DNA from: Streptomyces calvus
GTDB taxonomy: Bacteria > Actinomycetota > Actinomycetes > Streptomycetales > Streptomycetaceae
Direction: 5' to 3'
DNA: 64,000 bases
NCBI RefSeq assembly: GCF_006782915.1
Contig: NZ_VCNP01000009.1
Coordinates: forward strand, 124,001 to 188,000
Below are positions 50,145 to 57,563 of this stretch, piece after piece; the stretch's first letter is position 1; each line of letters opens with the position of its first letter. Below the pieces are notes generated by a model. It was not told the origin of the DNA. It did not search any database and worked only from the letters and a program-made list of their open reading frames with translations. The position numbers were made by a program, and so were the translations under genes.

Positions 50145-50804
50145 TCAGGACAGGTGCGCCACCGCGTCCAGGTGCGGCAGGTGGTGGTCGAGGCGCTCCC
50201 GCTTGGTGCGCAGATAGGTGATGTTGTTCTCGCACGGCGGGATGAGCAGCGGCACCTGTTCGGTGACCTGGATGCCGTGCTGCACCAACGCGTCCCGTTT
50301 GCGCGGGTTGTTGGACATCAGCCGCACCGACCGTACGCCGAGGTCCCGCAGGATGCCCACGGCCACGGCGTAGTCGCGGGCGTCCACGGGAAGTCCGAGC
50401 GCCAGGTTGGCCTCGACGGTGTCCAGTCCTTCCGCCTGCAGGGCCATCGCGTGCAGTTTCGCGAGCAGGCCGATGCCGCGGCCCTCGTGGCCCCTCAAGT
50501 ACACGACCACGCCCGCGCCTTCGGCGACCACCGCGCGCAGCGCCGACGCCAACTGCTCGCCGCACTCGCAGTGCCGTGAGCCGAAGGCGTCCCCGGTGAG
50601 GCACTCCGAGTGCAGCCGGGTCAGCACGTCCTCGGCGCCCGGATCCCCGTACACCAGGGCGACTTGCTCCTCGCCCCGGTCGTGGTCGAGATAGCCGACC
50701 GCCTGGAACGTCCCGTACACGGTGGGCAGCGGCGCATTGACGACGCGTTCCACGCCGGTCCGCCGGGCGGGCTTCTTGCCGAGTACGCCTACTTTTTCTG
50801 TCAT
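50145..50804 (-). CDS. GTP cyclohydrolase II paralogue with Met at the catalytic Tyr position
   Basis: A 219-residue RibA-family protein. Zinc ligands C68, C79 and C81 (ECLTGDAFGSRHCECGEQ) and the phosphate/GTP segment YLRGHEGRGIGLLAK are intact, so ring opening of GTP should proceed. The residue after KLHA is M120 (KLHAMALQ), whereas canonical enzymes have Tyr there (KIRAYALQ). From memory, the S. coelicolor paralogue SCO6655 has this change and releases the formylated intermediate FAPy instead of the riboflavin precursor. ATG 50804 is chosen, with AGGAACGCGAG upstream. It is divergent by 41 bp from the creatininase-fold gene, so the two are probably co-regulated. This marks a dedicated pathway, not riboflavin synthesis. 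Confidence 0.93.
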   Translation of the reverse strand: MTEKVGVLGKKPARRTGVERVVNAPLPTVYGTFQAVGYLDHDRGEEQVALVYGDPGAEDVLTRLHSECLTGDAFGSRHCECGEQLASALRAVVAEGAGVVVYLRGHEGRGIGLLAKLHAMALQAEGLDTVEANLALGLPVDARDYAVAVGILRDLGVRSVRLMSNNPRKRDALVQHGIQVTEQVPLLIPPCENNITYLRTKRERLDHHLPHLDAVAHLS

Positions 50805-50845
50805 GATTCTCGCGTTCCTAAGCAGAGACGAAAGGCCGTGAAGAC

Positions 50846-51682
50846 ATGGGTGGTTCACACAATCGGTCGGCGGCATACGGCCCGGTGCACGGTCTGTTGC
50901 CGGCGGACACTACGGAGGATGTACGGAATCGGGGCGCCGGCGTCTCACGGCAGATCGCGGTGCTTCCCGTCGGGAGTTTCGAGCAGCACGGCCCGTTCCT
51001 TCCGCTGGCGACCGATACGCTGGTCGCCTGTGCGATCGCCCGGGAGATAGCGGACGCCTACCCGGTGCACCTCCTCCCTCCGGTGACGATCTCCTGCTCG
51101 CACGAGCACGCGGCCTGGCCGGGCACCGTCTCCCTGTCCTCCGTCACCCTGCACGCGGTGGTCCGGGACATAGCCGACTCGCTGCGCCGGTCGGGCGTGG
51201 AGGCTTTGGTGCTGGTCAACGGGCACGGCGGAAACTACGTACTGGGCAACGTCGTTCAGGAGTCCTCCGCCCGCGGTGAACGGATGGCCCTCTTCCCGGC
51301 CCCGGAGGACTGGGAGACGGCGCGGGTACGGGCCGGTGTGGTCACCTCGCTGCTCACCGACATGCACGCCGGGGAAATCGAGACCTCCGTCCTTCTGCAC
51401 ACGCATCCCGAATTGCTGAGGGCCGGTTATGAGACCTCCGATCACGTCGCGGACGACCGGCGCCATCTCCTCACCGCCGGAATGTCCGCCTACACCGATT
51501 CCGGTGTCATCGGCCGCCCTTCCCTGGCCTCGCCGGAAAAGGGCAAGGAACTGCTGACGAGCCTGACGGAATCCTTCGGCGCGTATGTCTCGCTGCTGAC
51601 CTCGACGGACTCCCGGCAACCGGATGAACCCGATTCATCTGGTTCACCTGATGCACGGGGTTCCGGAAAGTCGGACGCCTGA
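50846..51682 (+). CDS. creatininase-family amidohydrolase, candidate FAPy-processing enzyme
   Basis: A 278-residue member of the creatininase/ArfB/MftE family. The metal site is complete: E46 and H48 (VGSFEQHGPFLPLATDT), D57, H126 (VLVNGHGGNY) and E176 (DMHAGEIETS). ArfB of archaea removes the formyl group from FAPy, so a neighbour that makes FAPy gives a direct functional match (inference). MftE-like peptidase activity is an alternative, but no mycofactocin genes are present. The last 55 residues are Ser/Asp/Gly-rich and overlap, antisense, the end of the next gene. Codon choice in the 3' third is less G+C-rich than in its neighbours. Confidence 0.9.
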   Translation: MGGSHNRSAAYGPVHGLLPADTTEDVRNRGAGVSRQIAVLPVGSFEQHGPFLPLATDTLVACAIAREIADAYPVHLLPPVTISCSHEHAAWPGTVSLSSVTLHAVVRDIADSLRRSGVEALVLVNGHGGNYVLGNVVQESSARGERMALFPAPEDWETARVRAGVVTSLLTDMHAGEIETSVLLHTHPELLRAGYETSDHVADDRRHLLTAGMSAYTDSGVIGRPSLASPEKGKELLTSLTESFGAYVSLLTSTDSRQPDEPDSSGSPDARGSGKSDA

Positions 51683-55681: not shown

Positions 55682-56675
55682 GGCGCGCGTCGGTGCGGTG
55701 CGGGTCGCCGTAGCGGATGCGGTGGCACAGCGCGGGCGTCTCGCCGGAGGCGAGCCGGGGCATGACCTCGGGCAGTTCCTCGAAGGGGGACTCGCCGGTG
55801 ACGAGGGCGTCGAGCGCGGGGTCGGCGAGCAGGTCGAGGGCGAGGGCGAGCCGGTCGGCGTAACCGCGGTGGGCGCGCGCCGGGGAGACCGTGCCGACCT
55901 GGCTGCCGCGGATGACCAGCCGCCGTGAGTGGAAGGCCTCGCCCAGCGGGAGGCTCACCTTCCGGTCGCCGTACCAGCTGAGTTCGACGACGGTGCCCTC
56001 CGCGCGGAGCAGTTCCAGGGCCGTGGCGAGCCCTTCCTCGGTGGCGCTGGCGTGGACGACCAGGTCGCACGCCCCGAGGGCGTCACCGGGCAGCGCGAAG
56101 CCGACCCCGAGGGCCTCGGCGGTCCTCGCCCGGGCGGGATCCGCGTCGACCAGCTGGATCCGTACGCCCGGGAAGCGGGCCAGCAGTGCCGCGACCGAGC
56201 AGCCGACCATGCCGCCGCCGACCACGGCGATCCGGTCACCGACCAGCGGCGCCGCGTCCCACAGGGCGTTGACGGCGGTCTCGACGGTGCCGGCCAGCAC
56301 GGCCCGGCCCACGGGCACACCGTCGGGCACGGGAGTGACGGCGCTCGCCGGGACGACGTACCGCGTCTGGTGCGGGTAGAGGCAGAACACCGTACGGCCG
56401 GTGAGTGCCGCGGGCCCCTCCTCCACCACGCCGACGTTCAGGTAGCCGTACTTCACCGGTCCCGGGAAGTCGCCTTCCTGGAACGGGGCGCGCATCGCCG
56501 TGTGCTGGCTCTCGGGCACGCCGCCGCGGAAGACGAGCGTCTCGGTGCCCCGGCTCACCCCGGAGTAGAGCGTGCGCACCACCACCTCGTCGGGACCGGG
56601 TACGGGCAGGTCGACCTCGCGGATTCCGCCTCGGCCAGGTGAGTCGAGCCAGAACGCGCGGGCGGTGCGGTTCAT
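55677..56675 (-). CDS. MDR-family alcohol/polyol dehydrogenase-like oxidoreductase
   Basis: A 332-residue medium-chain dehydrogenase. The N-terminal GroES-like half includes YSGVSRGTETLVFRGGVP, and the nucleotide-binding half has IAVVGGGMVGCSVAALLARFPG with acidic D in LVDADPAR, suggesting NAD. The usual zinc-ligand Cys-His pattern of alcohol dehydrogenases (G-x-C-H) is replaced by S-R-G-T-E-T, so it is probably a zinc-free or differently liganded member, like the TDH-bchlide group. ATG 56675 follows GGAGG. It heads the minus-strand unit running to the flippase-like gene and is divergent from the phosphatidyltransferase gene. Confidence 0.88.
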   Translation of the reverse strand: MNRTARAFWLDSPGRGGIREVDLPVPGPDEVVVRTLYSGVSRGTETLVFRGGVPESQHTAMRAPFQEGDFPGPVKYGYLNVGVVEEGPAALTGRTVFCLYPHQTRYVVPASAVTPVPDGVPVGRAVLAGTVETAVNALWDAAPLVGDRIAVVGGGMVGCSVAALLARFPGVRIQLVDADPARARTAEALGVGFALPGDALGACDLVVHASATEEGLATALELLRAEGTVVELSWYGDRKVSLPLGEAFHSRRLVIRGSQVGTVSPARAHRGYADRLALALDLLADPALDALVTGESPFEELPEVMPRLASGETPALCHRIRYGDPHRTDARP

Positions 56676-56783
56676 CGGGATCCTCCTGAACGATCGGGAA
56701 GCTGCACGCGTACCGAGTGGTGCACAGGCCGCGCACAAGGTAGCGGCGTTGATCGACTCTGTCACACGGCCGGAGGGTGTTCG

Positions 56784-57563
56784 GTGGCCCTGAACAACAC
56801 GTACGACGCGAGGCCCGTACAGCAGGAGACCGCCGTGGGAGCGGGCGTGCAGATCCTGTTGCTCGCGCTGCTCGGCACGGCGATCGGCATGGGCCCGGCC
56901 GGCTGGCTGACCGGGCTGGCGTTCGCGATCGCCACCTGGGCGGTGCTCTCCCGGGCCCTGCACCGGTCCCGGCTGCGTTCCTTCGGTGCCGCGAACCGGG
57001 TCACCCTCGGCCGCGCCACCCTCGTCGGCGGGGTGACCGCACTGGTCGCCGACTCGTTCCACGGCTCGCCGCCGGTCTCGCTGTTCGTCGGTCTCACCGC
57101 GGTGGCCCTCGTCCTCGACGGCGTGGACGGCAAGGTGGCGCGCAGGACCGGTACGGCGACCCCGCTGGGCGCCCGCTTCGACATGGAGGTGGACGCCTTC
57201 CTGATCCTGGTGCTGAGCGTGTACGTGTCGACGGCGATGGGCCCTTGGGTGCTGCTGATCGGCGGGATGCGGTACGTGTTCGTCGCGGCGGCGCGGGTCT
57301 GGCCCTGGCTGACCGCCCCGCTCCCGCCGAGCACGGCCCGCAAGACGGTGGCCGCGCTGCAGGGGGTGCTGTTGCTGCTGGCCGGCGCGGCCCTGCTGCC
57401 GCACACGGTCAACGTCGGGGTGGTGCTGCTGGCGTTGGCGCTGCTGGTGTGGTCGTTCGGCCGGGACGTGCTGTGGCTGTGCCGGGCGTCGCGGGCGACG
57501 GCGGTCCCGGCGGGACGTCAGGCGCAGGAAGAGCGGGAGCGGCGGGAGTTGGTCGCCGGGTGA
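56784..57563 (+). CDS. CDP-alcohol phosphatidyltransferase family protein
   Basis: A 259-residue membrane enzyme. The family motif D-G-x2-A-R-x8-G-x3-D-x3-D is exact: D115-G116, A119-R120, G129, D133 and D137, preceded by D112 (LVLDGVDGKVARRTGTATPLGARFDMEVD, residues 111-137). Several helices precede and follow it. Members swap CMP of a CDP-activated alcohol or lipid for another alcohol. Position within the GTP-derived cluster suggests that the product is attached to a phospholipid or polyol phosphate (inference). GTG 56784, no overlap with neighbours; the 108-bp gap upstream is the divergent promoter. Confidence 0.9.
   Translation: MALNNTYDARPVQQETAVGAGVQILLLALLGTAIGMGPAGWLTGLAFAIATWAVLSRALHRSRLRSFGAANRVTLGRATLVGGVTALVADSFHGSPPVSLFVGLTAVALVLDGVDGKVARRTGTATPLGARFDMEVDAFLILVLSVYVSTAMGPWVLLIGGMRYVFVAAARVWPWLTAPLPPSTARKTVAALQGVLLLLAGAALLPHTVNVGVVLLALALLVWSFGRDVLWLCRASRATAVPAGRQAQEERERRELVAG

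What the first reader, a model, noticed from the sequence alone, without database searches (positions are those of the whole stretch)
50145..57563. Candidate GTP-derived metabolite pathway: FAPy-forming RibA paralogue, creatininase-fold enzyme and catalytically altered PTPS homologue with lipid/sugar genes
The RibA paralogue keeps its zinc and GTP-binding residues but has M120 for the catalytic Tyr. It should therefore release FAPy nucleotide rather than the riboflavin precursor. A creatininase/ArfB-type enzyme starts 41 bp away on the other strand. A PTPS-fold protein with HGA for HGH and no cysteine follows, overlapped with a GT4 glycosyltransferase, a SAM methyltransferase and an UPF0104 membrane protein; an MDR dehydrogenase and a CDP-alcohol phosphatidyltransferase flank them. 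Taken together this suggests a glycosylated, methylated, possibly lipid-attached pyrimidine or pterin-like product. The product is not known to me.
Basis: partly seen in the sequence, partly recalled or inferred. Interest (0 to 1): 0.93.

Follow-up and report, generated by a model that had tools for sequence, protein, structure and literature searches.

The report
Split GTP cyclohydrolase in pteridine cluster
This Streptomyces cluster holds eight gene families that recur together across many actinobacteria; two of its enzymes likely share the first chemical step of vitamin B2 synthesis and would feed a predicted sugar-bearing, pteridine-like product that is still unknown.

Summary
In detail: eight gene families lie at 50145-57563 and recur together well beyond Streptomyces. 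The PTPS-fold protein is the orthologue of SCO6650 (PDB 3d7j), so this is the known but unsolved SCO6650-SCO6655 region.

The interpretation needs one correction. In 120 RibA-bearing loci, all 104 Tyr-less RibAs (Met, His, Leu or Gln) go with the cluster creatininase; none of the 16 Tyr RibAs does. A creatininase-family protein, BrbF, is already shown in Sinorhizobium to deformylate FAPy nucleotide. So RibA plus creatininase most likely form a split GTP cyclohydrolase II whose net product is the ordinary riboflavin intermediate DARP. FAPy would be a relay, not the branch point.

Sister clusters carry a RibD_C reductase; outside the class the conserved core is RibD_C, MDR, PTPS-fold and GT4. 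No deaminase was found in the cluster, and the PTPS-fold protein keeps its base-anchoring Glu while losing Cys and a zinc ligand. I infer a ribityl 2-amino-pyrimidine or pteridine, glycosylated and methylated, perhaps lipid-linked. The product stays unknown. The Tyr loss arose once or twice, so the association is long co-retention, not many independent events.

The parts
50145..50804 (-). RibA paralogue without the catalytic Tyr (Met120); predicted FAPy-forming half of a split GTP cyclohydrolase II
50846..51682 (+). creatininase-family protein; predicted FAPy deformylase, the other half
51490..52743 (-). UPF0104 / LPG_synthase_TM membrane protein, flippase-like
52740..53891 (-). SAM methyltransferase, overlaps UPF0104 gene by 4 bp
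53888..55126 (-). GT4 glycosyltransferase (start GTG 55126 or ATG 54985)
55123..55491 (-). PTPS-fold (T-fold) protein, orthologue of SCO6650; no Cys, HGA for HGH, Glu110 kept
55677..56675 (-). BchC-like MDR dehydrogenase
56784..57563 (+). CDP-alcohol phosphatidyltransferase

Best explanation
The Tyr-less RibA (50145-50804) and the creatininase-family protein (50846-51682) likely act as the two halves of a split GTP cyclohydrolase II: the RibA is predicted to open GTP and release the FAPy nucleotide, and the creatininase is predicted to remove its formyl group, so that together they would deliver the ordinary riboflavin intermediate DARP (2,5-diamino-6-ribosylamino-4(3H)-pyrimidinone 5'-phosphate). 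Inferred next step: a RibD_C reductase turns DARP into its ribityl form; it is encoded inside sister clusters, while in the window's genome only unlinked genes of that family were found. Inferred step after that: the PTPS-fold protein binds the undeaminated 2-amino-4-oxo pyrimidine through its conserved Glu and, with the MDR dehydrogenase, closes or edits it to a pteridine-like product. GT4 and MT would then glycosylate and methylate it, and the CDP-alcohol transferase and UPF0104 protein may place it on a lipid and move it. Shown here: gene content, co-retention, residue states and sister-cluster composition. Every chemical step is inferred.
For: 104 of 104 Tyr-less RibAs (M 89, H 8, L 6, Q 1) have the cluster creatininase, 103 inside the fetched locus and one about 4 kb beyond it; 0 of 16 Tyr RibAs do. 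In 14 of the 103 the two genes are not neighbours, so adjacency alone does not explain it. Tyr-less RibAs keep the ring-opening residues I checked in 104 of 104: E. coli C54, C65, C67, Q70, E92, R94, D126, R128, K154. The creatininases keep E46, H48, D57, H127, E177 in at least 99% of 104; that these are the metal ligands is recalled. 22 of 22 RibAs in 20 cluster-negative Streptomyces are Tyr. A creatininase-family protein, BrbF, was shown to turn FAPy nucleotide into DARP (PMC9478397). 15 of 16 Tyr loci and 16 of 16 out-of-class loci hold a RibD_C protein; one of them (L044) matches 5xux at 116 bits and the DARP reductase 6p8c at 91, against 65 or less for chains named RibD.
Against: No activity was measured. 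The Tyr-less RibAs form one or two clades, one origin not ruled out, so there are few independent events. The creatininase is far below the ArfB model (36.5 of 180 bits) and scores best on MftE (131.7, under its cut-off of 172); I had no BrbF sequence to compare. Two cluster-negative Streptomyces of 20 carry a related creatininase without the cluster, one intact and one broken. The window's cluster has no reductase of its own; in the window's genome the best one is fused to a deaminase and probably serves riboflavin too. In the tested Streptomyces, 6 of 20 cluster-negative genomes also have that reductase type. Four of the 15 RibD_C hits in Tyr loci are weak (44-80 bits: L050, L052, L053, L173).
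Confidence: 0.68

Rival explanations
1. FAPy nucleotide itself is the retained precursor, and the creatininase hydrolyses a different amide or lactam later in the pathway.
For: Release of FAPy by the Tyr-less RibA is expected (recalled for SCO6655), and the creatininase matches no known subfamily model over its cut-off.
Against: Tyr clusters with the same MDR, PTPS-fold and GT genes lack the creatininase, so its reaction is needed only where the Tyr is missing.
Confidence: 0.12
2. The PTPS-fold protein acts on unreduced DARP by an Amadori-type ring closure, like GTP cyclohydrolase I, giving a dihydroneopterin phosphate; the RibD_C protein (a DHFR-like fold) then reduces the pterin instead of DARP.
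For: GTP cyclohydrolase I shares the T-fold (recalled). FolB (PF02152) is encoded next to RibD_C in an out-of-class locus, L167, and its ORF cluster occurs in 9 of 24 loci compared.
Against: The one RibD_C protein searched matches 5xux and the DARP reductase 6p8c best. The FolB gene may belong to an unrelated folate operon.
Confidence: 0.14
3. The cluster is a second riboflavin supply route, as BrbF is in Sinorhizobium, and the other genes are neighbours by chance.
For: Same predicted intermediate; BrbF precedent (PMC9478397).
Against: No other riboflavin family is among the eight cluster families. MDR, PTPS-fold and GT are kept together in and out of the class. 20 of 20 cluster-negative Streptomyces have a Tyr RibA. 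SCO6655 expression is listed as anticorrelated with predicted riboflavin flux (PMC2853524, one passage).
Confidence: 0.05

Closest known systems
SCO6650-SCO6655 region of Streptomyces coelicolor (SCO6655 FAPy-forming RibA; SCO6650 structure 3d7j)
   Same: PTPS-fold protein orthologous over its full length, E 2.4e-74; gene order fits the SCO numbers (inferred). FAPy formation by SCO6655 through Met120 is recalled, not read.
   Different: The partner rule with the creatininase, the alternating Tyr RibA and the RibD_C reductase were in no paper I found.
BrbF riboflavin formamidase of Sinorhizobium meliloti (PMC9478397)
   Same: Creatininase family; predicted same reaction, FAPy nucleotide to DARP.
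   Different: BrbF serves riboflavin and its FAPy-forming partner was not found; here the likely partner is encoded in the same cluster. Sequences not compared.
Archaeal ArfA / ArfB / ArfC (RIB7) entry to riboflavin (partly recalled)
   Same: Three-step logic: FAPy, deformylation, reduction before deamination.
   Different: ArfA is replaced by a RibA-family protein; the creatininase fails the ArfB model; no deaminase or lumazine synthase among the cluster families.
6-pyruvoyl-tetrahydropterin synthase / QueD
   Same: PF01242 over cut-off; the Glu near the C-terminus is invariant.
   Different: Cys lost and the zinc HGH changed to HGA; far below the QueD and 6PTHBS cut-offs.

Membership tests
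GTP cyclohydrolase II (RibA) | TIGR00505 over its cut-off | tested here: met
   218.7 of 205.85 bits
GTP cyclohydrolase II (RibA) | three zinc Cys | tested here: met
   104 of 104 Tyr-less RibAs
GTP cyclohydrolase II (RibA) | catalytic Tyr (E. coli Tyr105) | tested here: not met
   Met120; so not filed as a complete GTP cyclohydrolase II
GTP cyclohydrolase II (RibA) | product of the single enzyme | not testable with these tools
   needs an enzyme assay
ArfB | NF033501 over its cut-off | tested here: not met
   36.5 of 180 bits
Mycofactocin MftE | TIGR03964 over its cut-off | tested here: not met
   131.7 of 172 bits
Creatininase (creatinine hydrolysing) | TIGR04448 over its cut-off | tested here: not met
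   98.9 of 235 bits
BrbF | creatininase superfamily domain PF02633 | tested here: met
   213.5 bits
BrbF | sequence clade with SMc02977 | not tested
   no BrbF sequence at hand
BrbF | formate release from FAPy nucleotide | not testable with these tools
   needs an enzyme assay
PTPS / QueD | PF01242 fold family | tested here: met
   75.8 bits; orthologue 3d7j
PTPS / QueD | catalytic Cys and complete HxH zinc site (roles recalled) | tested here: not met
   no Cys; HGA
PTPS / QueD | QueD TIGR03367 / 6PTHBS TIGR00039 over cut-off | tested here: not met
   31.5 of 89.25 and 20.7 of 125.5 bits
DARP reductase (RIB7 / ArfC), in sister clusters | RibD_C PF01872 over cut-off | tested here: met
   L044 149.9, L064 135.1, L166 169.7 bits; not present inside the window's cluster

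The most novel reading that the evidence does not exclude
Actinomycetota own an undescribed ribityl-pteridine pathway: an archaeal-style entry (split GTP cyclohydrolase II plus a RIB7-like reductase, no deaminase) feeds a zinc-free PTPS-fold enzyme, and the resulting 2-amino analogue of a lumazine or flavin is glycosylated, methylated and membrane-anchored, with a role in aerial hyphae and spores.
Probability: 0.3. Interest if true: 0.88.

Novelty: new variant of a known kind. Interest (0 to 1): 0.7.

Why it matters
It offers a reason why Streptomyces keeps a RibA that lost its catalytic Tyr: a creatininase-family enzyme would finish the reaction. The rule is testable and suggests a candidate class, Tyr-less RibA, for the FAPy-forming partner of BrbF that the Sinorhizobium paper left open. 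It places the orphan SCO6650 structure in a pathway with a likely substrate class, and points to a widespread actinobacterial metabolite that my paper searches did not find described. In S. coelicolor SCO6652, the methyltransferase by position, is about log2 4 up in aerial and spore stages (PMC3610822).

Tried and rejected
Rejected: plain riboflavin duplication (rival 3). Rejected as evidence of a dedicated reductase: the unlinked reductase of cluster-positive Streptomyces, because in the window's genome it is a reductase-deaminase fusion and the two reductase searches returned no ordinary RibD there, so it is probably also the riboflavin enzyme. Creatininase structure prediction from the single sequence gave mean pLDDT 39.3 and was not used. 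The creatininase homologue search listed only generic names among its best 120. PDB searches with MDR, CDP-OH PT and GT4 gave no telling substrate. The serine hydrolase and ABC transporter genes beside the cluster are not counted as part of it: serine hydrolase in 8 and SBP and ABC permease in 5 each of 41 loci clustered, none outside Streptomyces. Loci L182-L190 (9) hold a distant QueD-like protein without the cluster and were left out of the cluster counts; L185 among them stays in the 120 RibA rows as the Tyr row without RibD_C. The RibA rows include near-copies: 117 distinct, 34 at 80% identity, 19 Tyr-less and 15 Tyr.
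Full report
What is there. The eight genes lie at 50145-57563 as described. PTPS, GT4, MT and UPF0104 form a run with 4-bp overlaps. RibA and the creatininase are divergent across 41 bp. The PTPS-fold protein matches PDB 3d7j, labelled SCO6650, over its whole length at E 2.4e-74. From the SCO numbers (3d7j; SCO6655 as GTP cyclohydrolase II in PMC2853524) and the gene order I infer that this is the SCO6650-SCO6655 region. 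That SCO6655 has Met120 and makes FAPy is recalled from Spoonamore and colleagues (2006), a paper I did not look up; the 2008 structure paper is not held, and searches by name found neither.

How widely it is kept. The window's PTPS-fold protein hits 44 of 296 genomes of the class, a profile of it 59 of 394 (26 of 137 genera). Among the 28 genomes of the window's own genus listed, 16 hit. In a phylum draw 59 of 296 hit, many of them distant QueD-like proteins. I annotated 161 loci (160 fetched plus the window) with profiles made from the cluster. In 55 unnamed-genome loci: GT and PTPS 55, MDR 54, UPF0104 47, CDP-OH PT 46, RibA 43, MT 43, creatininase 28, RibD_C 22; one of these, L165, comes from outside the class and some lie on short contigs. 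In 80 named loci: MDR, PTPS, CDP-OH PT and MT 80, GT 79, UPF0104 77, RibA and creatininase 74, RibD_C 11. In 16 loci outside the class: MDR, PTPS and RibD_C 16, GT 15, RibA 1. A methyltransferase domain follows the GT in the one out-of-class ORF scanned (L166).

The partner rule. In 120 RibA-bearing loci, window included, residue 120 is Tyr in 16 and something else in 104 (M 89, H 8, L 6, Q 1). The cluster creatininase (over 300 bits) is present with 103 of the 104 and with 0 of the 16. The missing one lay about 4 kb beyond the piece I had fetched. Of six genomes with a Tyr cluster RibA searched whole, none has a creatininase better than E 2.6e-22, against 4.6e-80 for the orthologue. In 14 of the 103 the two genes are not neighbours. 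The sequences are related: 117 are distinct, 34 remain at 80% identity, and the tree puts the Tyr-less RibAs in one or two clades, with one origin not ruled out. The Fisher value printed ignores this, leaves out L185, and should not be read as a probability. What the pattern shows is that members of at least three named families (Streptomycetaceae, Pseudonocardiaceae, Thermomonosporaceae) have kept both genes while residue 120 drifted, and that sister clusters with the same downstream genes use a different RibA, with Tyr, and no creatininase. Two checks came out as expected. 22 of 22 RibAs in 20 cluster-negative Streptomyces are Tyr. 19 of 19 RibAs are Tyr in 12 cluster-positive genomes picked because a fetched cluster locus lacked RibA; one of the 19, in G009, is already among the 16, and three lie beside RibD_C and UPF0104 on other contigs. 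Against a strict rule, two cluster-negative genomes carry a related creatininase, G356 (60% identity, open frame of 246 aa) and G392 (57%, broken by a stop).

Why this suggests a split enzyme. The Tyr-less RibAs keep the ring-opening residues I checked (104 of 104). In Sinorhizobium a creatininase-family protein, BrbF, was shown to release formate from FAPy nucleotide to give DARP, and its FAPy-forming partner was left open (PMC9478397: abstract and outline, passages, Discussion, Results part 1). The word Streptomyces does not occur in its main text. The same paper shows that relatives can differ: two more distant homologues did not complement the mutant. The cluster creatininase is not an ArfB by its model (36.5 of 180 bits), nor MftE (131.7 of 172), nor creatininase (98.9 of 235). 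So its function is inferred from association and family precedent, not from subfamily membership.

What comes next in the pathway. Fifteen of 16 Tyr loci and 16 of 16 out-of-class loci hold a RibD_C hit; in four Tyr loci and in the out-of-class loci the profile score is low (44-80 bits), but Pfam confirms the out-of-class one that I tested (L166, 169.7 bits). The one searched against the PDB (L044) is closest to 5xux (116 bits; an archaeal RIB7 by recall, named only 'Conserved protein' in the listing) and to the DARP reductase 6p8c (91 bits); chains named RibD reach 65 bits or less. Fourteen Met loci carry a more distant RibD_C between creatininase and UPF0104 (Pfam on L064). In Streptomyces, 16 of 20 cluster-positive genomes have the first reductase type elsewhere, and the other four are those with a RibD_C inside the cluster; 6 of 20 cluster-negative genomes have the first type too. 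In the window's genome it is a reductase-deaminase fusion, unlinked, and probably shared with riboflavin synthesis. No deaminase is among the cluster families, so I infer that the 2-amino group stays. That fits the PTPS-fold protein, which keeps the Glu that in this family reads the 2-amino-4-oxo edge (recalled) and has FGPA in place of the Cys motif in the 23 aligned members and in the out-of-class ones; L053, a 41-bit outlier, has neither motif. Out-of-class relatives still have HGH; the Actinomycetes members aligned have HGA, an apparent stepwise loss. The reactions of the PTPS-fold and MDR proteins, the sugar, the methylation site and any lipid are unknown.

Expression hints. SCO6655 is listed (r -0.61) among genes anticorrelated with predicted flux; the same passage says most of the listed genes rise in stationary phase (PMC2853524, one passage). 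SCO6652, the methyltransferase by position, is listed among the most differentially expressed genes of unknown function conserved in the genus, log2 0.8, 4.3 and 4.1 at 24, 48 and 72 h (PMC3610822, passages).

Verdict. Real, conserved and partly known. The new element is the partner rule and the reductase, which turn an orphan cluster into a testable pathway from GTP through DARP. The product remains open.

Noticed in passing
L166-L181: Out-of-class loci keep a compact RibD_C - MDR - PTPS-fold - GT core whose PTPS-fold protein has lost the Cys (FGPA) but keeps the HGH zinc site.
   Followed up: partly
L205:9259-10470: The window's genome encodes an unlinked RibD-like protein in reversed order, reductase first and deaminase second; in L208, L215 and L216 this type sits near a second, Tyr RibA.
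   Followed up: partly
L167:12029-12475: FolB (dihydroneopterin aldolase) encoded next to RibD_C in an out-of-class locus; its ORF cluster occurs in 9 of 24 loci compared.
   Followed up: no
L241:6427-7125 and L242:9360-10022: Two cluster-negative Streptomyces carry a related creatininase away from any cluster gene found, one intact and one broken.
   Followed up: partly
window 57623-62160: MFS protein, a double-length ABC permease ORF and a solute-binding protein follow the cluster; permease and binding protein recur in 5 of 41 loci clustered.
   Followed up: no
window 48341-50138: An F420-dependent PPOX-class oxidoreductase (TIGR03618, 127 bits) and a beta-lactamase-like serine hydrolase (by eye) lie beside the cluster.
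   Followed up: no
window 52740-53891: The methyltransferase has a long low-complexity N-terminal stretch with a repeated GPRDAAHAVS-like motif.
   Followed up: no
window 45924-48317: A 797-aa UvrA-like ORF, recognised by eye; a 78% identical gene also lies near the cluster in L056.
   Followed up: no
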